From positions 125,726,191-125,790,190 of the forward strand of contig CM036618.1 of the NCBI GenBank assembly GCA_020746105.1: a DNA stretch of 64,000 nucleotides, in the 5' to 3' direction. The stretch comes from Trogon surrucura (Eukaryota; Chordata; Aves; Trogoniformes; Trogonidae). Both the position numbers and the translations under genes were made by a program. Below are positions 32,503 to 41,780 of this stretch, piece by piece (positions within the stretch are counted from its first letter, which is position 1; each line of letters opens with the position of its first letter). Under the pieces are notes generated by a model. That model saw only the letters and a program-made list of their open reading frames with translations, was not told the origin of the DNA and searched no databases.

Positions 32503-32506
32503 AGTG
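32503..32506. repeat. Target-site duplication, left copy (AGTG)
   Basis: AGTG directly precedes the 5' LTR and is repeated directly after the 3' LTR at 41777-41780. A 4-bp duplication is the usual footprint of gammaretrovirus-type integrases. It marks this as an original insertion that has not since recombined. Confidence 0.9.
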
Positions 32507-32686
32507 TGTTGCAAATAAAGTAGAATTAAAATTGTAGAAGTAGTTAGGTTAAGGCTTTGACTGGCCAGGTAGGCCTTATGAGAATAACAAGTCCTGGGAA
32601 GCAAGAAGGAGTGTGCCGAAGAAGAAGGAACAATAATCAAAGGAATCGGTAGGGCATATAGGACAAACAGAACTAGCAGAAGTAAC

Positions 32687-32716
32687 GAACAGTTGCTTAG
32701 GGAACAGTTGCTTAGG
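32687..32716 (+). repeat. 15-bp tandem direct repeat in U3
   Basis: GAACAGTTGCTTAGG occurs twice head to tail with no mismatch, and the same pair is present in the 3' LTR (41452-41481). Duplicated units in U3 are often enhancer elements in gammaretroviruses; function here is inferred from position only. Confidence 0.8.
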
Positions 32717-32824
32717 AATAAGAAAGGTGTATTGTATAAACAAAGGGGTTCTGGTGATGGGAATCAGTTAACCATTATCCTTAGGTTAGACAAGCATGAA
32801 AATTTATAAGTTTGGGGATAATTA

Positions 32825-32885
32825 CCAATTGTTTCTGTATGAGGTAGAATTCTGTATGTAAGCCAAGTTGTAAAAGGTATAAAAA
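32825..32885 (+). promoter_or_regulatory. Proviral core promoter (CCAAT and TATA boxes)
   Basis: CCAAT at 32825-32829 and TATAAAAA at 32878-32885 have normal retroviral spacing. They predict transcription start roughly 25-30 nt downstream, near 32905-32912. The matching copy in the 3' LTR (41590-41650) could drive flanking host sequence. Confidence 0.8.
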
Positions 32886-32953
32886 TTAAACAGAAAATGA
32901 GGGTCTTCGGAATCCTGACTTTGGACGCTAGTCCTCAGGTTTCCCGGGCCCTG

Positions 32954-32959
32954 AATAAA
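32954..32959 (+). terminator. Polyadenylation signal AATAAA (5' LTR)
   Basis: AATAAA lies about 75 nt downstream of the TATA box and is followed by a GT-rich U5, the arrangement expected for an R-region signal. The 3' LTR copy is the one used for genomic RNA. Confidence 0.8.
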
Positions 32960-33017
32960 GCACCGCATAAACTGACACTCTGTTGGTTTGTGTCTCTGTT
33001 TACGGGCAACAGTTTTC

Positions 33018-33035
33018 TGGCGACCGCGGCAGGAC
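33018..33035 (+). other. Candidate primer binding site
   Basis: Six nucleotides after the 5' LTR the sequence reads TGGCGACCGCGGCAGGAC. It starts with TGG, complementary to the CCA end of a tRNA. The first eight bases, TGGCGACC, resemble those of tRNA-Arg primer sites, but I could not check the full 18 nt against avian tRNAs. The 6-nt gap from the LTR is slightly longer than usual. Confidence 0.6.
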
Positions 33036-33139
33036 TCCGGAGGCGGCAGGAGCGGTTCACGGGCTGATCCACTCCAAGCCGGCACCAGGTGATTTCTGGG
33101 GAGACATCAACCCGTGCCCGACTCCGCGCTGGACGGACA

Positions 33140-33156
33140 ACCGTAAGGTAAGCCCG
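33140..33156 (+). promoter_or_regulatory. Probable major splice donor for env mRNA
   Basis: CGTAAG|GTAAGC places the cut after 33147. The match to the donor consensus is strong and it lies in the leader between primer site and gag, where simple retroviruses keep the donor for the spliced env message. The acceptor upstream of env was not identified with confidence. Confidence 0.65.
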
Positions 33157-33393
33157 AAGGTGCTTTATTCTTTTAAGGTTGGGTGCCTGCCCATAAGACG
33201 AGGACTTATCTCGCAGGGTTGGGCAAAGGTTCTGGTATTGGGAAGCCTAGGCGCTGGCCGTAAGACGCAGCGAAAGCCGCGCTGAGCCAGCACTTGCCAC
33301 TCGCGGCGTCGAGAATAGGCAAGTTGGTTGGTATTAAGGTAAAAGGGTTATAGTATTGTAGTTGTACGAGTGTGTGTGTGTGTGAGTAGTATA

Positions 33394-33839
33394 ATGCTGT
33401 TTAAAATGTTTAGAGTTCTATCGTGCAATGAAATCGATATCCCTGAGGATTCTCCTCTTGGTTGTTTATTGAAACGTTGGAAAGATGGTAATTTTGGAAA
33501 GGAATTAAGAAAGAGAAATTTAATTGATTATTGTAATTACGTATGGCCTGAATATGAAACAGAAGGAATGCAGTGGCCGCGAAACGGTACAGTGAATTCA
33601 GAAATTATAACCCCCTTAATGCAGTTCTTACGGGAAAATGAAAAATGGGAAGAGGTGCCGTACCTTGACTTATTTTATTATTTAAAAGGGAAACCTGAGT
33701 GGCAGAAAGAATGTGGAATGATGGTATTGAGATTAACAGATAAGGAATGTGCTGGTTGTAAGGAGCGGAAAGTCTGGTTCTCGGAACCGGAGGAGGATGT
33801 GTCTTTGTTAGTTTCCCCAAGCGCGCCGTCCCCCCCCCC
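33394..33839 (+). pseudogene. gag: gag, first part: matrix
   Basis: This gamma-type matrix segment has a DSPLGCLLKRW block early, an RKRNLIDYCNYVWPEY block in the middle and EKWEEVPYLDLFYYL near the end. That is the order of the MLV-type matrix, which directs Gag to the membrane. The start is either ATG 33394 or ATG 33406. The open frame extends upstream only through a GTG repeat, so I prefer 33394. Neither start is followed by Gly, so N-myristoylation is not predicted. The frame is lost at the C10 run 33830-33839, after which the gag-like sequence continues in the neighbouring frame, equivalent to one missing base. Confidence 0.85.
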
Positions 33840-34001
33840 GAAATACCACCACCGAATGACCATAAGGTCACTATTCCTGTTTTAACAGAAGAGGAAACAG
33901 AGTCTGAAGAATTGTTGGCTGATAAGCCGAGAACGCCGCTTGCAGAGCGGACTCGTAAAGGGAGGTTAGAACGGAAAAAGAGATTGCTACAACCTCATTA
34001 G
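33840..34001 (+). pseudogene. gag: gag, Pro/acidic linker ending in a TAG stop
   Basis: After the C10 run the coding signal is in the frame that also contains the capsid. The segment is proline-rich, then acidic (EEETESEEL), then basic, and occupies the position of the p12-like linker of gammaretroviruses. It ends in an in-frame TAG at 33999-34001, directly before the ATG at 34002. No PPxY or PTAP budding motif was seen in this frame. Confidence 0.75.
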
Positions 34002-34862
34002 ATGGTCCCGTTACGGGAGGCTGTGGGGGGAAGTGGAGAAAGAATTTTAGTAAAGGTCCCATTTTCTCCGAGTGATCTGATGATTTGGAAGCAATCGGCA
34101 GGGGCATATAGAGAAAATCCGGAGAAGGTGGCTCGGGTAATAAAAATGGTGATAAAAACACAAAATCCAGATTGGAATGATTTACAGGTGTTATTAGATA
34201 CTATAATGGATTCCACTGAAAAGGAGATGGTGTTTAAGGCTATGACAGATCGAGCGCGAGAAATGGTTAGGATGCGGGTTATTAAAGGTGATACTATTAA
34301 TAATTTGGTGCCCAGAGAAGATCCCGAGTGGGATCCCAACTCCGGGGAGGGGTATCGTAGACTGAAAGCGTACCAAGAATTATTGATAGATGGGATACGC
34401 GAAGGGATTCCGAAAACATTGAATTGGTCTAAATTGTATTTGGTAAGACAAGACAAAGGGGAGTCACCATCGGCGTTTTTAGAGAGACTGAAGGAGACGG
34501 CTCGGAGATATACGGATTTGGATGTGGAAGCTGAGTCAGGCAAATTACAATTGGCATTGATTTTTATGGGACAATCTCAGGAGGACATTAGGAAAAAGCT
34601 GCAGAAGCTAGAAGGGGAAGATACACGGAACTTGGAGAAATTATTAGAAGTGGCCTGGAAAGTATATAATAGTAGGGAAAAGGAATCAGTAAAGAAACAG
34701 CAAGCGAGCATGCTGGCAGTCCTGCAACAGGCTTCTCAAGTGAATAATAGAGGAAGGGGCCGGGGGAGAGGAAGAGGTAATGAACGAGGAAGAAACTTCG
34801 GGTTTGGGGGTTTTGGAAATCAAGTCCCGGGAGGTCGGGAAAAGTTGGGACCTAATCAATGA
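34002..34862 (+). pseudogene. gag: gag, capsid (p30 type), charged helix and RG box
   Basis: 286 open codons. Residues 18-30 (VKVPFSPSDLMIW) match the start of the gammaretroviral p30 core. ESPSAFLERLKE at 154-165 is the major-homology-type block, followed by RRYTDLD. Residues about 195-240 form a charged, heptad-like helix resembling the MLV charged assembly helix. Residues 250-264 are alternating Arg-Gly, then FGFGGFG. The frame ends at TGA 34860-34862, exactly at the first cysteine position of the zinc knuckle that follows in the same frame. In the family this protein forms the capsid shell. Confidence 0.92.
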
Positions 34863-35078
34863 GCGCTGTGTAAGGGCCAGGGACACTGGAAAAAGGAGTG
34901 CCCACTTAATTTGGGGATGGGAACACCAGTGGGTGGTAACATAGGTGGAAATGCATTAGGAAATGGGATGAATTTGGACGGAGGGATGAATTCTGGTAAC
35001 GGAATGAACCCTTTTGTAGGAGGACCACAAGGTGTCGCTCAAGCTTTTATGATGAGAAATTATCAGAATCAGAGCTGA
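34863..35078 (+). pseudogene. gag: gag, nucleocapsid knuckle and Gly/Asn/Met-rich tail
   Basis: In the same frame as the capsid, immediately after TGA 34860, the sequence encodes C-x4-H-x4-C (CKGQGHWKKEC), three of the four ligands of one CCHC knuckle, which binds genomic RNA. It is followed by about 55 residues dominated by Gly, Asn and Met (for example NGMNLDGGMNSGNGMN), then by TGA at 35076-35078. This tail is unlike the short nucleocapsid ends of familiar gammaretroviruses. Confidence 0.85.
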
Positions 35079-35082
35079 CTAG
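35076..35082 (+). promoter_or_regulatory. gag/pol stop in a readthrough context (TGACTAG)
   Basis: Gag and protease are in one frame, separated only by TGA followed by CTAG. UGA-CUAG is the best-characterised strong readthrough context, known from several vertebrate cellular mRNAs, and UGA-CUA from alphaviruses. Gammaretroviruses make Gag-Pol by readthrough at this place, normally of UAG with a downstream pseudoknot. I infer the same strategy here; a downstream RNA structure was not assessed. Confidence 0.7.
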
Positions 35083-36791
35083 ACCAAGATTTAAAGGTTA
35101 TTTTGGAAATAGGGGGGGAACCGATGGAATTTAGGGTAAATACCGGGGCAAGTTTTTCAGCAATGAATAAACAAATGGGACCTCTGAGTGATTCTACAGT
35201 GCTTGTTGTTGGGGTAACTGGGGAAGTAGAGGAAAGGACATTCCTGCGGCCACTCGATATAAAATTTGGGGGAAAGGAGTTTGACCATCAGTTTTTATAT
35301 ATACCAAGCAGTCCAGAGTGTCTACTAGGAAGAGATTTACTCTCAGCATTACAAGCAAAAATCATATTTGAAAAAGGAAGAGTAAAATTAGAAATACCGG
35401 AGGAAAATTTAGCAAAAATTTTTATGGTTAGGGAGGTGGAGAAGGAGGAAATACCACCAGAGATTGAGCAGGCTGTAGTACCATGGGTGTGGGAAATAGG
35501 AGCGCCAGGGAAATCGAAGGCAGCAGTACCTGCGATAGTGGAATTAAAAGAGGGGGCCCGACCGGTAAGGATACGTCAGTATCCTATTAAGCTGGAAACC
35601 CGGAAAGGAATAGCCCCTATGATAACTCAGTATATGGTATTAGGAATTTTGCAGGAATGTGAATCCGAGTTCAATACTCCAATTTTCCCAGTTAGAAAAC
35701 CCAACGGTAAATACAGACTAGTACAGGACTTACGAGCAGTAAATTCCATCACCAAAGATATACACCCAGTAGTAGCCAATCCATATACTTTGTTAACATC
35801 TGTGTCTGAGAAATTTCAGTGGTTTACAGTAATTGATTTGAAAGATGCTTTCTTCTGCATCCCTCTGGCACCTGAGAGCAGAAATATTTTTGCATTTGAA
35901 TGGGAAAATCCGGAAACTGGACGTAAGCGCCAACTCACCTGGACCAGGTTACCTCAAGGATTTAAGAACTCACCTACAATTTTCGGAAATCAGCTGGCCA
36001 AGGAGCTCGAAGGATGGAAAACTGCCCAGGTAAAGGACTCACCTTTTTCCTATGTTGTGTTGCAGTATGTAGATGATATTTTCCTGGGTGCTATGAATCG
36101 AAATCTCTGCCAACAATTGACTATTGAATTATTGAATATGTTGGGACAGGCTGGATACCGGGTATCCAAAGAAAAAGCACAGTTAGTAAAACAAAAGGTC
36201 ATCTATTTGGGATGTGAAATTTCGCAAGGGGTTCGCCGATTGGGAGCCAATCGCGTCCAAGCAATATGCGCAATCCCCGTGCCCCGCAATCACCAAGAAT
36301 TAAGATCCTTTCTAGGGATGGTCGGTTGGTGTCGCTTGTGGATTTCAAATTTTGGATTGATGGCCAGACCACTTTATGAAGCAACAAAAGAGTCTGTATT
36401 TAGATGGGGAAAGGTGCAGGAAAAGGCATTCCAGGAATTGAAAAGGGCACTCAAGGAGGCACCTGCTTTGGGTTTGCCGGATTTGAATAAGGACTTTCAA
36501 CTATATGTGAATGAAAGACAGAGACTGGCCCTGGGTGTGCTTACCCAAAAGCTGGGATCCTGGAAGAGGCCTGTGGGATATTTCTCCAAACAGTTGGATA
36601 CGGTAAGCGGAGGATGGCCGGGATGTTTGAGGGCAGTGGCGACCACAGTACTCTTGATTCAGGAAGCCCGTAAGCTAACGTTGGGAAGACACATAACAGT
36701 CTTTGTGCCCCACATGGTTATAGCAGTATTGGAACAAAAAGGGGGCATTGGCTCTCATCAAGCAGAATGCTCCAATACCAGGCCCAGTTAA
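35079..36791 (+). pseudogene. pol: pro-pol, first part: protease and reverse transcriptase
   Basis: Protease comes first. Its active-site block reads NTGASFS (AAT at 35139-35141), with Asn where aspartic proteases have the catalytic Asp, and CLLGRDLL lies about 58 residues later. RT follows, with GARPVRIRQYPI, RLVQDLRAVN, VIDLKDAFF (first catalytic Asp), LPQGFKNSP and YVDD at 36066-36077 (the catalytic pair), then the LGMVGWCRLWI connection region. These are gamma-type motifs and look intact. The coding signal leaves this frame at the A5G5 run 36736-36745, so the last codons before the stop at 36791 are out of frame. RT copies the RNA genome; the protease would process Gag-Pol but is probably inactive as read. 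Confidence 0.93.
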
Positions 36792-38599
36792 GGGAACAGG
36801 ATGATGTGGAATTGAAAGTAACTAACCATCTCAACCCAGCGGAGTTTTTAAGGTCCACACAGGAAGAAGGAGAATTAGAACATGATTGCATGGAAGTGAT
36901 TGAGCAGGTGTATGCCAGCCGGAAGGACTTGAAGGACGTACCCCTACCAGATCCGGACTGGGAGCTGTTTACGGATGGATCCAGCTTCGTGGAAAATGGT
37001 ACCAGGTATGCGGGATATGCAGTGGTCACATTACAGCAAATAGTAGAAGCAAAAGCACTACCCCCAGGCACATCGGCACAAAAGGCCGAGATCTGGGCTC
37101 TAATAAGAGCCCTAATCCTGAGCCAAGGAAAGAAAGTCAATATTTGGACAGATTCTAAATATGCTTTTGGAGTAGTGCATGTGCATGGGGCTCTGTGGAA
37201 AGAGAGGGGGCTCCTCAATTCGCAAGGATCGACGGTTAAACACAAAACTGAAGTTAGTTTACTACTGGAAGTTATCTACAAACCATTAGCAGTGGCAGTA
37301 ATGCATGTTAAAGGACACCAAAATGATCCAGGAAAAGAATTTCAAGGGAATCGGCGAGCTGATCAGGTTGCCAGACAAGTGGCAAGAGAGGTATGGACTC
37401 AAATGGCACTAATACCAGTTCGAGATCAACCGGCTGCTGCATATATGGATGAGAAACCACACTACTCACCGGAAGATGAAAAACTGGCTCAAATGTTACA
37501 GGCAAGGAAGAACATCAAAGGCTGGTATGTAACTCCGGTGGGACAAGTAATATTGCCGGTAAGAATTATAAAAGCAATACTAGAATCAGAACACAACAAA
37601 TGTCATTGGGGTGCAGAAGCAATGGTGAAATTCCTGAAAAATGACATATTCTCAAACCAGATGTTAACATTAGCAAAGAGAATAAATGCTATGTGTCCGG
37701 TATGTATTAAAAACAATCCAGTAATTGGGAAACAGATTCAGATGGGCAAGCTGCAAGTAGGGCCTCAACTGGGAGATTACTGGCAGATTGATTTTTCTGA
37801 GCTACCAAAAGCCCAAATGTATAAATATCTTCTGGTGTACGTGTGTACGTTTTCAGGATGGCCTGAGGCCTTCCCTTGTAGAACTAATCAAGCTAAAGAG
37901 GTGGTGAAAACACTTCTGAAAGAGATCATCCCCAGATTCGGGGTTCCGTTAGGGATATCATCAGATAGGGGCCCACATTTTACAGCAGGAATTGTCCAAC
38001 AAGTTTCAGTAGTATTAGGGATAACCTGGAATTTGCATACTCCTTGGAGACCACAATCAAGCGGGCAAGTGGAAAGGATGAATCAGACTCTAACGGGTCA
38101 AATTAAGAAAATCTGCCAAGAGGCAAAAATTCAGTGGCCGCAGGCATTGCCGTTAGCTCTACTAAGAATTAGAATTAAACCAAGGGAAAGGTTAGGAGTA
38201 AGTCCGTATGAGATCCTATATGGCAAACCCTACCATGCAGCTACTTATAAGGGAGACCCCCATCTGGTAGGAGACCAGATGATACTAAATTATGTGTTAT
38301 CTCTAAATAAGACTCTTACAGCTATTAGAGGAGCACTACAGTGGAATCGACCTCTATCACTGGATAATCCAGTCCACGACATACTTCCGGGAGACCAAGT
38401 TTATGTAAGGAACTGGTCAGTGGAACCCCTGAAAGAAACATGGGACGGTCCTCACCAGGTGATCATGACCACCTATACGGCTGTCAAGGTCGGCGGGATA
38501 GACAACTGGATTCATTACACCAGAGTCAAGAAAGTTCCTACGCGATGGTCGGTAGAAACTTTATCTCCTACACGAATGGTATTCAGAAGCAAAAATTAG
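36746..38599 (+). pseudogene. pol: pol, second part: RNase H and integrase
   Basis: An open frame of 610 codons from ATG 36767; the pol signal begins upstream at the A5G5 shift. RNase H has FTDGS (Asp70), AEIW (Glu108), WTDSKYAF (Asp129) and RRADQ (Asp199), the full acidic set, plus the VKGHQ block. Integrase has the zinc-binding H-x3-H (276, 280) and C-x2-C (310, 313). Its catalytic triad is Asp342 (37790), Asp400 (37964) and Glu436 (38072), a D,D35E arrangement. A GPY/F-like C-terminus contains DGPHQVIMTTYTAVKV. No key residue is missing. The end overlaps the env open frame, as in many retroviruses. Confidence 0.95.
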
Positions 38600-38604
38600 G
38601 AGTA

Positions 38605-39027
38605 ATGGTTCTCTTTCATCTGTTGGCATTGGTAGAAACTCATGTAAAAGTTAATGTGTCTGAACCGTATCTGTTAGTACCTGAAACTACTGATGTTAAC
38701 TTGACTTGTTTGTTTACTGATGACCAGGGAGCTGGATTTGAGGAAATTAATGCGAGATGGAGGTGGATCACGGGAGATGAATTAATCACAAAAGGAATCG
38801 AAACCATCTGGGATGTGACACATCAGGAAGGGAAAACTACCCTGCAGATACCCAAAGTGTCAAAAGACAATGAAGGAAAATACACCTGTGTGATCTGGAT
38901 ACGGTATAGTGTTGATTATGGGGATATGAATCTATACGTTACTAACACTTCACAGAAAGAGGAGACTAGAGATGCAATTCAGATAATCCCAGCAAACAAG
39001 AGGGTGGAAATGTGGGATGGCCCCCCC
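38605..39027 (+). pseudogene. env: env, first part: signal region and Ig-like segment 1
   Basis: ATG 38605 lies just after the pol stop and gives a short hydrophobic start (VLFHLLALV). The open frame extends upstream to 38440, with a further ATG at 38545, so the leader could be longer and overlap pol. Residues about 13-115 look like a V-type immunoglobulin domain: NLTC (Cys35), ARWRW (Trp51) and KDNEGKYTC (Cys95), with strand-like alternation between. N-x-S/T sites lie at 17, 32 and 114. The frame is lost at the C7 run 39021-39027, equivalent to one missing base, and the env signal continues in the next frame. Confidence 0.82.
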
Positions 39028-40190
39028 AGTTGAAAATAAATTGTACCTTTAAATTTGGAACACAATGTAGTCAAAAGGTCCAAGTGAAGTGGTGGAAGTT
39101 CAATGCCAGTCAGCAAATGTGGGGTCCACAAACAGCAGGGGTAAGTTGGAGGTCAAATAAGTTGGGAGGTAAAGGATGGTTAAACATAACAAATCCCAGG
39201 GTTGGGAGGACAGAAGGGAAATATTTGTGCATTGTTATTTGTGGAGCTAGCGGAAACTATGGGATTAGAAACGTAGAGTCGGTACCCCATCAGCATCAGG
39301 GAATAAGGCCAGAACATGGAATATATCCGGCAGTGGAAGGAAAAGACGTGATTCTAAATTGTCTTGTACGAAATTTAAGTTATTCGGATTACGGGTGGTG
39401 GTACAAGGGAAAGAATTTAGAAACAGGAGGAAAATACCGAATTGAAAATAGGTTCCAATCGATAGTCTTGATCATTAAAAAGGTGAGCAGGGAAATTGAT
39501 ATAGGACAATATTGGTGTTGGATAGCCCGGGATGATTGGTGGGTTAATGGAATGGCGACGGTGTATATAAAGAAGAAAAGAGTGGTTCGACAGGCTATCG
39601 AAGAGGGTAAACTAGCTAAAGTCGGGAGTCAAGAAAATTTAATAGTAGGATTAATTAGAGATTTTGGACAAATTCAGAATGCCACAACCATTACAGCATG
39701 TTTACCTATGCCACATGCAGCAGGTGATCCCATACCCTGGGGAATTATACCAGTTCTCGAAATGCCCAAAATGTTACAGAATGTTTCCTGGAATTGTAAG
39801 TTTGTCACTACCACAACTTATGAATGGGTAAATGTTTGTATATTGATTAGCAAAACAAAAATAACTAAGAAACAGTGTGAGCAAAAACCAGGATATTATG
39901 GATGGATTGAAGACCCGAAAATTAAAGGAAATTGTTTAATTCGAGACAGTGTAGTGCACCCTCGAGGCCCTGATTTATGTAGTAAAATGAGAACTCGGGA
40001 AAAACAAGAGAAGCGAGAGGAAGTGTGCCAAAATATCACCAATTCTACAACGATGAAACAATGGCAAACAATCTGGGGACCAAGCCTGTTAGAAACATAT
40101 AGTTATATTGGACCAGTACATTGGTGTATACATTGGAAGGGAAAGAAGAATCAAACTTATTCACAGATGTATAAGGAAAGTAGTGAATGA
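39028..40190 (+). pseudogene. env: env, middle: Ig-like segments 2 and 3 and SU core
   Basis: After the C7 run the frame continues (the open frame itself begins at ATG 39012). Segment 2 (about 39030-39290) has INC, VKWW and TEGKYLC. Segment 3 (about 39312-39581) has ILNC, GWWYKG, KYRIE and DIGQYWC, the last resembling the YWC ending of pIgR/CD300-type V domains. After a basic stretch comes a retroviral SU-like region with ATTITACLPMPHAAGDPIPW, several cysteines and N-glycosylation sites. The frame stops at TGA 40188-40190, and SU-like sequence resumes in the same frame directly after it. SU binds the receptor; the Ig array would sit farthest from the membrane. Confidence 0.85.
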
Positions 40191-41219
40191 AGAGAAGAGA
40201 CACAGCTAATAGGGGATTGGAATTGTACACAAATTTACACTTGTGACACTCCTGATGAACATATTGGTTTAATGCCGGTTCGAATGCTATTGCAATTGGG
40301 TTGTGAGTGTAGAGGTTATAATCATTCCATCAGAGAAAGTTTAAAGCAAGTTGATTGCAAAACAGCCACAGTAAGGAGTCCAGGAAATCTGGTATGGGTA
40401 ATGGGACATGGACATTGGACCACACATATGGCTGTCGATGGGCCAGCTACTCAGATTACCTTGGGAGTCCCAACACTTTGTCCATTCTGGAAATATTCAA
40501 AACTCACCACAAAGGAAATGCAGGGAAGACAAAAACGGGATATTGGTGATGATATCGACAACATAGGATTAGGAAATGACGAGTGGCACGAACCATCTTC
40601 AGGGGTTAAGTTTGGGTGGGTATTAGAATCTATATTTGCACAGGTATCAACATATCGAAATCGGGAAATGTTGTTTAAATTATTGGGACAAACTGAAAGG
40701 CTTGCAGCAGTAACTAAGAAGGGATTTAGGGATTTGAATCTACAACTACAAGCAACCACTAGAATGACAATACAAAATCGAATGGCCTTGGACCTGATGT
40801 TATTAGAGGAACATGGAGTTTGTGGGTACCTGCATGGTAGAGTTGATCATTGTTGTGTGCACATCCCAAACGTTACTCAAGAAATTGAAAAGGACATTAG
40901 CCAATTGGAACAAATCGAAGGGAAAGTCCATGAAATTCAGAAGGAAGCAGAACACAATTGGATAGGAGAAATATTCAGCTCCCTGGAAATTCGAGTTTCT
41001 GGTTGGATATCATCTATTGTACAATATGGAATCATGATTGTTGTAATTATCATTGTTGCCTTGATTACGTATAAGTGTCTTTTAGGAATGATCATAAGAG
41101 AAGGACAACATACTCGGAGAGTCATGAAGGCGATGACACGCAGGGAAGTGATATTCCCACAGAACTACCTGCAACCCCATCCAGACAACCCACCCGCTTA
41201 CCAAGAGACGACAACCTAA
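40191..41219 (+). pseudogene. env: env, end of SU and transmembrane subunit
   Basis: This is in the same frame as the preceding piece; the first ATG is at 40272. It ends SU with the GNLVWVMGHGHWTTHMAVDG and ITLGVPTLCP blocks, then has a furin-type site RQKR at 40527-40538. The TM subunit (about 40539 onward) has no obvious N-terminal fusion peptide. It has the IQNRMALDLMLLEEHGVCG block, then Cys184 and the Cys194-Cys195 pair with nine residues between instead of the usual six. A membrane helix spans about 246-272 (GIMIVVIIIVALI) and a 43-residue tail contains PPAY. Numbering is from ATG 40272. Confidence 0.92.
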
Positions 41220-41258
41220 ATGGTTGAGCATCCTTGCGAAGATAATCGAAGAATGCTC

Positions 41259-41268
41259 AAAAGGGGGG
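41259..41268 (+). other. Polypurine tract
   Basis: AAAAGGGGGG ends three nucleotides before the 3' LTR, the right place and composition for priming plus-strand DNA synthesis. It lies 40 nt after the env stop, so there is no room for a 3' accessory gene. Confidence 0.9.
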
Positions 41269-41271
41269 ACT

Positions 41272-41776
41272 TGTTGCAAATAAAGTAGAATTAAAATTGT
41301 AGAAGTAGTTAGGTTAAGGCTTTGACTGGCCAGGTAGGCCTTATGAGAATAACAAGTCCTGGGAAGCAAGAAGGAGTGTGCCGAAGAAGAAGGAACAATA
41401 ATCAAAGGAATCGGTAGGGCATATAGGACAAACAGAACTAGCAGAAGTAACGAACAGTTGCTTAGGGAACAGTTGCTTAGGAATAAGAAAGGTGTATTGT
41501 ATAAACAAAGGGGTTCTGGTGATGGGAATCAGTTAACCATTATCCTTAGGTTAGACAAGCATGAAAATTTATAAGTTTGGGGATAATTACCAATTGTTTC
41601 TGTATGAGGTAGAATTCTGTATGTAAGCCAAGTTGTAAAAGGTATAAAAATTAAACAGAAAATGAGGGTCTTCGGAATCCTGACTTTGGACGCTAGTCCT
41701 CAGGTTTCCCGGGCCCTGAATAAAGCACCGCATAAACTGACACTCTGTTGGTTTGTGTCTCTGTTTACGGGCAACA
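41272..41776 (+). repeat. 3' LTR (505 bp)
   Basis: Same length as the 5' LTR and, on reading both through, the same sequence: TGTTGC start, duplicated 15-bp unit, CCAAT, TATA, AATAAA, GT-rich U5, GCAACA end. Because the two LTRs are copied from one template at insertion, identity indicates a young insertion or later gene conversion. Confidence 0.97.
41719..41724 (+). terminator. Polyadenylation signal AATAAA (3' LTR)
   Basis: The AATAAA in R of the 3' LTR, followed by the GT-rich U5, would end the proviral transcripts near 41740. Confidence 0.8.
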
Positions 41777-41780
41777 AGTG
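41777..41780. repeat. Target-site duplication, right copy (AGTG)
   Basis: AGTG follows the 3' LTR and equals the left copy at 32503-32506. Confidence 0.9.

What the first reader, a model, noticed from the sequence alone, without database searches (positions are those of the whole stretch)
38641..39581. Retroviral Env with three tandem immunoglobulin-like domains
Seen in the sequence: before the recognisable SU/TM, env encodes three successive segments, each with a Cys, a Trp 11-17 residues later and a closing G-x-Y-x-C (GKYTC, GKYLC, GQYWC) after an alternating hydrophobic strand pattern. Known: the MLV receptor-binding domain has an Ig-like fold by structure but lacks these signatures. Inference: this lineage captured and expanded host-type V domains, or evolved a convergent Ig array, perhaps for receptor choice, cell adhesion or decoy functions. 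I know of no described retrovirus with this layout.
Basis: partly seen in the sequence, partly recalled or inferred. Interest (0 to 1): 0.92.

Follow-up and report, generated by a model that had tools for sequence, protein, structure and literature searches.

The report
Bird retrovirus envelope with immunoglobulin array
A family of bird endogenous retroviruses makes an envelope protein that starts with up to three antibody-like domains, set off by a probable cutting site, and bird poxviruses carry the same three domains as a stand-alone protein, which suggests that one virus borrowed a ready-made module from another.

Summary
A young gamma-like provirus (505-bp LTRs, 100% identical) has an env whose N-terminus is three canonical Ig domains; Ig1 and Ig3 are well supported, Ig2 more weakly. 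In this copy env is interrupted, but in 10 of 83 Ig1 matches in the same genome one frame of 897-949 aa runs through array, SU and TM. Bird relatives have 0, 1, 2 or 3 Ig domains, always before an R-x-x-R-type motif (23 of 24 proteins; 2.9 expected) that comes before a conserved SU core. The array thus sits in a probably convertase-cut N-terminal segment. Unexpectedly, avipoxviruses encode the same Ig1-Ig2-Ig3 chain (37-50% identical) as a stand-alone, apparently secreted protein with an env-like leader, mostly ending just before the place of the motif. The 7 pox rows form one clade (100/99) beside suboscine-bird env rows, and the shared leader overlaps pol in the retrovirus. Best reading: a separable, probably released Ig module, taken from env by avipoxviruses. 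Cleavage, release, ligand and the direction of transfer are not proved. Ten searches of an open PMC library found no description.

The parts
32507..33011 (+). 5' LTR (TG...CA), 505 bp, identical to the 3' LTR; 4-bp target duplication AGTG at 32503-32506 and 41777-41780
33370..33885 (+). gag matrix piece (Gag_MA 20.4 bits, below cut-off 30)
34002..34862 (+). gag capsid piece (Gag_p30, 125.7 bits)
35103..36791 (+). protease and reverse transcriptase piece (RVP, RVT_1)
36674..38599 (+). RNase H and integrase piece with gamma-type MLVIN_C tail; in another frame from the RT piece, so pol is interrupted in this copy
38545..38598 (+). env leader before the signal peptide (ATG at 38545), overlapping the pol 3' end in another frame; NGIQKQKL at 38575-38598 has its counterpart in avipox proteins
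38605..38640 (+). signal-peptide-like hydrophobic stretch MVLFHLLALVET
   Evidence: hydropathy; not tested with a signal-peptide predictor
38641..38943 (+). Ig1, V-set/B7-like; Cys 38707, Trp 38758, GKYTC 38875
38970..39293 (+). Ig2 (limits approximate), with an extra conserved Cys pair; its first strand lies in the Ig1 frame and the rest in the shifted frame; GKYLC 39216
39294..39578 (+). Ig3, I-set-like; GQYWC 39504
39579..39590 (+). R-V-V-R, convertase-like motif between the array and the SU core
39630..40538 (+). SU core from QENLIVGLIRDFG to RQKR; interrupted in this copy by the stop at 40188-40190
40539..41219 (+). TM subunit: C-x9-CC (40821-40856), membrane helix, tail
41272..41776 (+). 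3' LTR

Best explanation
SHOWN: env of this bird retrovirus family begins with a leader and signal-like peptide, then one to three Ig domains (three in this lineage), then an R-x-x-R-type motif, then a conserved SU core, RxKR and TM. Related envs with zero Ig domains have such a motif in the same place, so the Ig module sits in what is otherwise a short N-terminal segment. Avipoxviruses encode the same Ig1-Ig2-Ig3 chain as a stand-alone protein with an env-like leader that mostly stops before the place of the motif. INFERRED: a proprotein convertase cuts env twice, at the array/SU border and at SU/TM. The roughly 310-residue array becomes a separate soluble or virion-associated glycoprotein while SU-TM does entry. 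The array binds a host surface or immune ligand as a decoy or modulator, or acts as a removable cap on SU. An avipoxvirus ancestor took the env 5' part (direction env to pox likely, not proved) and uses it as a secreted protein.
Against: Cleavage at the border was not tested; several motifs lack a basic P2 residue, and P0011 has none. The leader match is weaker for P0041 (252 of 5000) and P0043 (98 of 5000), and the leader stretches were picked by hand from the alignment. The outgroup (Strigops) branch is very long (4.2 changes per column), the AU clade was named after the tree was seen, and a second AU test (non-suboscine passerine env as one clade) was not rejected (p 0.055). Without the outgroup the root is not fixed. 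The Strigops Ig domain passes no Pfam cut-off and matches the Ig1 profile over 48 residues only. No avipox DNA was found, so the pol-frame test of the leader could not be made. dS was saturated for Ig2 and Ig3 between the lineages. SU core and TM were modelled with low confidence, so how the array sits on the trimer is unknown. Nothing shows a ligand.
Confidence: 0.5

Rival explanations
1. The array is the receptor-binding or adhesion part of SU and stays on the virion. Its changing domain number tunes reach or receptor choice, and the R-x-x-R is uncut or cut without release.
For: It sits at the N-terminus of SU, where gamma-type Envs have their receptor-binding domain; Ig1 is kept while Ig2 and Ig3 come and go in most array envs; Ig1 resembles cell-surface ligands (PD-L2, CD276, JAM-A).
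Against: Envs of the same wider family live without any Ig domain and with an otherwise similar SU core (P0030, P0026); avipoxviruses use the array without SU or TM; the border motif is kept in 23 of 24.
Confidence: 0.3
2. The module moved the other way: a retrovirus captured an avipoxvirus Ig gene, which was later passed around among bird retroviruses.
For: Poxviruses hold many Ig-like genes; pox and env are each one side of a branch if the root is left free.
Against: With Strigops env as outgroup pox nests inside passerine env (AU p 0.011, with the caveats given). Env rows are more diverse, and a parrot env has a single Ig1-like domain before the same kind of motif. The pox leader matches an env segment that overlaps pol. 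In the SU-TM tree the suboscine envs group with the window-host and P0002 envs (83/74) inside an unresolved fork, not as a first branch.
Confidence: 0.1
3. Retrovirus and poxvirus each captured the same three-Ig bird gene.
For: Both are known to take host genes; crocodilian ERVs took nectin3 and KIT-ligand (PMC4299795, passages).
Against: Of the 17 proteins and the 9, 14 and 8 bear a name; none of the named ones is a clear cellular three-Ig gene: they are env/ERV-like or avipox (most are named only 'uncharacterized'; P0017 is a gene model that also holds ion-channel domains). Both share the env-type leader. The pox rows lie closer to some envs than those envs lie to others.
Confidence: 0.07

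Closest known systems
Gamma-type retroviral Env (MLV, FeLV, syncytins, ALV; reviewed in PMC9967133, passages read)
   Same: Gamma-like gag-pol (Gag_p30, MLVIN_C), SU-TM with RxKR and C-xn-CC in TM; TLV_coat above its cut-off in P0028, P0030 and P0013, 3 of the 5 env relatives scanned.
   Different: Three Ig domains and a second R-x-x-R before the SU core; no C-x-x-C in the 23 relatives in which the SU core start was found; C-x9-CC instead of C-x6-CC; no hydrophobic stretch right after RQKR.
Avipoxvirus 'Ig-like domain proteins' (SWPV1-183, CRPV-108, SWPV2-ORF074, and proteins of mudlark, albatross/penguin and finch pox)
   Same: Same domains in the same order and an env-like leader, 37-50% identity to the L009 array.
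   Different: Stand-alone, no SU or TM. PMC5390406 lists SWPV1-183 with best match CNPV081 'Ig-like domain protein', and PMC8151833 lists SWPV2-074 and SWPV2-076 under that name (passages); in these two and in PMC9445014 (where CRPV-108 does not occur) the word retrovir is absent from the main text.
CrocERV31 with captured nectin3 (PMC4299795, passages)
   Same: ERV carrying three Ig domains at the env position.
   Different: There a host gene replaces env (about 76% identical to host nectin3); here the array is fused in frame to a complete SU-TM and no host donor is known.
MLV/FeLV receptor-binding domain with Ig-like fold (recalled)
   Same: N-terminal beta-sandwich in a gamma-type SU.
Spumavirus Env leader peptide cut by furin (recalled)
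   Same: Extra N-terminal piece cut from the env precursor by a convertase.
   Different: As I recall, a short membrane-bound leader, not a chain of Ig domains.

Membership tests
Immunoglobulin superfamily | Paired Cys, core Trp and YxC on a beta sandwich | tested here: met
   Ig1 and Ig3 strong. Ig2: C/W/YxC kept in 9 rows and strands modelled, but only weak PDB profile hits (best E 0.007) and no Pfam match in the window piece.
Gammaretrovirus-like provirus (ERV1) | Gag_p30, gamma-type RT/IN with MLVIN_C, 4-bp target duplication, LTRs | tested here: met
Gamma-type Env | C-x-x-C in SU | tested here: not met
   None after the SU core start in the 23 of 40 proteins (P0001-P0040) in which that start was found; the other 17 were not tested, and some of the 23 are truncated. 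Alpharetroviral Env also lacks it (PMC9967133, passage).
Gamma-type Env | C-x6-CC after the ISD-like stretch in TM | tested here: not met
   C-x9-CC in all 32 of 40 proteins in which a C-x(5-10)-CC motif was found, and by eye in L009; the review says n is typically 6.
Gamma-type Env | Pfam TLV_coat | tested here: inconclusive
   Window TM 14.3 bits, below cut-off 22.5; P0028 30.2, P0030 31.4, P0013 26.3 above it; P0010 21.5 below; P0008 not listed.
Avipox Ig-like protein family (homology of the array) | Same domains in order, significant sequence identity | tested here: met
Captured cellular gene (as in CrocERV nectin3) | A host gene clearly closer than other Ig proteins | tested here: inconclusive
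Convertase-cut N-terminal env segment | Proteolytic separation in cells | not testable with these tools
   Motif only: 23 of 24.

The most novel reading that the evidence does not exclude
One retroviral env gene makes two products: a fusion protein and, by a second convertase cut, a free three-Ig immune decoy whose domain number changes by gain and loss. Avipoxviruses lifted exactly that decoy from a passerine retrovirus and kept it as a gene family, a virus-to-virus transfer of a ready-made host-interaction module.
Probability: 0.4. Interest if true: 0.93.

Novelty: new variant of a known kind. Interest (0 to 1): 0.87.

Why it matters
Retroviral Envs are usually seen as entry machines; this family shows a modular Ig chain hung in front of a conserved SU core, at a border that looks cleavable, with 0 to 3 domains in living birds. 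The avipoxvirus homologues suggest an origin for a set of pox genes named only by their Ig domain, link two unrelated virus groups through one protein module, and make the question 'what does the array do without the fusion machine' testable on a small soluble protein. They may also give a datable record of exchange between bird retroviruses and bird poxviruses.

Tried and rejected
Rejected: chance motif; a segment not continuous with env; a single-copy host gene (83 Ig1 matches and identical LTRs); a copy in the viral contigs (scans with A1, P0042 and P0041 gave no confirmed relative); the literature lead zebrafish Env38, where the Ig-like domains are CD4's, not Env's (PMC10072453, passages). 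Rfam and tRNA scans of the window were empty, and three other long window ORFs had no Pfam match.

Weak or negative results kept: Ig2 has no Pfam match in the window piece and only weak PDB matches. The full-length model has mean pLDDT 50.7, with SU core and TM unreliable. The VIA-align rows are a second look at Foldseek's matches, and the multi-domain rows have rmsd 13-23. Some 1-Ig states (P0003 and P0007, annotated isoforms) may be gene-model artefacts; P0008 and P0011 come from contigs of source lgn. Among young copies dN/dS in TM is 1.4-2.2 for three of nine (L011, L014, L016) and Ig1 and Ig3 scatter from 0.27 to 0.95. A second AU test gave p 0.055. The SU-TM tree used 29 of the 40 proteins host loci.

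Papers: no description of this env or of a retroviral origin of the avipox genes came up in the 10 searches of the open PMC library; of most hits I saw only the listing, and passages of eight papers. Subscription papers are mostly not held.

Full report
WHAT IS THERE. At 32507-41776 on the + strand is a provirus with two identical 505-bp LTRs and a 4-bp duplication AGTG. Its gag-pol is gamma-like: Gag_p30 125.7 bits, RVT_1 102.4, MLVIN_C 50.8. Gag, pol and env are each split over more than one open frame in this copy. With 0 differences in 505 bp the insertion is young, so the breaks were probably inherited: copies on C6, C10 and C43 have Ig1 and TM pieces in open frames of the same lengths.

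CONTINUITY AND CONSTRAINT. Ig1 has 83 match rows in the same genome, 10 of them in an open frame of 897-949 aa that the TM search finds as well. Of 20 env stretches fetched, chosen partly for open frames, 9 are open over 943 aa through array, SU and TM, one over 897 aa, and one (L019, a second lineage 72% identical in Ig1) is open to the contig end. Between L009 and L019 dN/dS is 0.17 in Ig1 and 0.205 in the SU part; dS is saturated in Ig2 and Ig3. Among young copies Ig2 gives 0-0.24, Ig1 and Ig3 scatter from 0.27 to 0.95 where defined, and TM exceeds 1 in three of nine. These rest on few changes and on copies chosen for open frames, so only the between-lineage figure counts as evidence.

RELATIVES. 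A search with the whole env gave 17 proteins: 14 from named birds of 13 genera, all passerines as I recall their taxonomy (Pipra, Manacus, Zosterops, Serinus, Catharus, Myiozetetes, Prinia, Geothlypis, Acridotheres, Melospiza, Poecile, Aphelocoma, Oenanthe), and 3 unnamed. A search with the TM region gave 36 proteins, including parrot (Strigops), cuckoo, pigeon, falcon and duck. Of the 24 proteins in which the SU core start was found, 5 have three Ig domains, 4 two, 7 one, 1 has Ig1 plus part of Ig2, 2 have a piece of Ig1, and 5 none. The Strigops env has one: the Ig1 profile finds it at 5e-9 over 48 residues, while the Pfam matches stay under their cut-offs. The Geothlypis protein has an Ig1-like front and an Ig3-like back, as if a deletion had joined two domains (by eye). 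In the SU-TM tree the passerine array clade is solid (20 rows, 100/100), with Strigops and Cuculus outside it and the zero-Ig clade (N-terminus seen in 3 of 4 rows) further out. The three-Ig state occurs in separate passerine branches, so two- and one-Ig states there look like losses (inference).

THE BORDER. In 23 of these 24 proteins an R-x-x-R or [RK]-x-[RK]-R motif lies within 25 residues before the SU core; random stretches of the same proteins would give 2.9. The miss is P0011. Of 20 fetched host stretches the border could be read in 18, and all 18 keep it. Zero-Ig envs carry a canonical RMKR there after a short segment (P0017, P0026, P0030). The motif is thus not part of the Ig array; it bounds whatever stands at the N-terminus. 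This is the ground for the inference that the N-terminal segment is cut off by a convertase and that the Ig chain occupies that segment. Cleavage itself is not shown.

THE POX LINK. The best viral structure match of the P0001 model is SWPV1-183 of shearwaterpox virus: 48% identity over 340 columns, TM-score 0.78 by target length; a second shearwaterpox protein, SWPV1-144, is at 40% over 143 columns, and the other 48 matches shown have at most 16% identity. A profile search with the array found 9 proteins, 7 of them avipoxviral (shearwater, crow, mudlark, albatross/penguin, finch). The Ig1, Ig2 and Ig3 profiles hit them in order, complete in 5 of 7. Several begin with a leader like that of env (MVYIIHSVYENGIYRKEL beside MVGRNFISYTNGIQKQKL) and most end right after Ig3, before the place of the env border motif; finch pox P0046 has a short extra tail, P0049 lacks Ig3 and P0047 lacks the start. 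In the retrovirus the leader overlaps the 3' end of pol in another frame. A pox gene has no evident reason to hold such a segment unless it descends from env. The leader match is strong for three pox rows (2, 2 and 1 of 5000 shuffles), moderate for P0043 (98) and weak for P0041 (252); P0044 and P0047 were not tested. In the array tree pox is one clade (100/99) beside suboscine env rows (90/95); holding passerine env together without pox is rejected at p 0.011, a test named after the tree was seen and leaning on a long outgroup branch, and a second test is not rejected at 0.055. Without four long rows the same neighbours remain (91/93). Two avipox genome papers list such genes as 'Ig-like domain protein' (passages).

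HOW IT PROBABLY WORKS. Steps shown: the anatomy, the variable Ig number, the conserved border, the pox homologues. Steps inferred: the array is cut from the precursor; it acts apart from SU-TM, either released or loosely attached; it binds a host protein; avipoxviruses use it as a secreted modulator. I give 0.5 to the separable-module reading, 0.3 to a receptor-binding or adhesion part that stays on the virion, and small weights to reverse transfer or to independent capture of one host gene.

KNOWN OR NEW. It is not a textbook gamma-type Env: no C-x-x-C in the 23 relatives tested and C-x9-CC in the 32 in which the motif was found. The nearest published case, nectin3 in crocodilian ERVs, replaces env and has a known host donor (PMC4299795, passages). 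Within the limits of the 10 literature searches I found no description of this layout or of the pox connection.

Noticed in passing
G000 contigs C60, C61, C62: 31 of 83 Ig1 match rows lie on three contigs that make up 16 of 1166 Mb, as would fit a sex-chromosome-like refuge for retroviruses; the chromosome was not identified.
   Followed up: no
G000:C61:3494101-3520844: Four copies on one strand spaced 8750, 8750 and 8752 bp, close to the window's internal-plus-one-LTR period of 8765: apparently tandem proviruses sharing LTRs.
   Followed up: no
window 38970-40190 and G000 C6, C10, C43: The interrupted env of this young copy recurs in other copies with Ig1 and TM open frames of the same lengths, so defective copies seem to have been spread with help from others.
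   Followed up: partly
G000, e.g. L029 (C1:47249700-47251700, minus strand): A second env family, TM about 37% identical, many copies with an open frame of 409-532 aa and, in the two read (L029, L031), no Ig array.
   Followed up: partly
window 40539-40620: TM starts with an acidic, not hydrophobic, stretch after RQKR; the fusion peptide is not obvious.
   Followed up: no
window 33012-33040: The stretch after the 5' LTR contains TGGCGACCGCGGCAGG six bases in; the primer tRNA was not assigned.
   Followed up: no
P0025 (duck): Duck protein with RT and env parts has another, non-Ig sequence before an RDKR motif and the SU core, perhaps a different N-terminal module or a gene-model chimaera.
   Followed up: no
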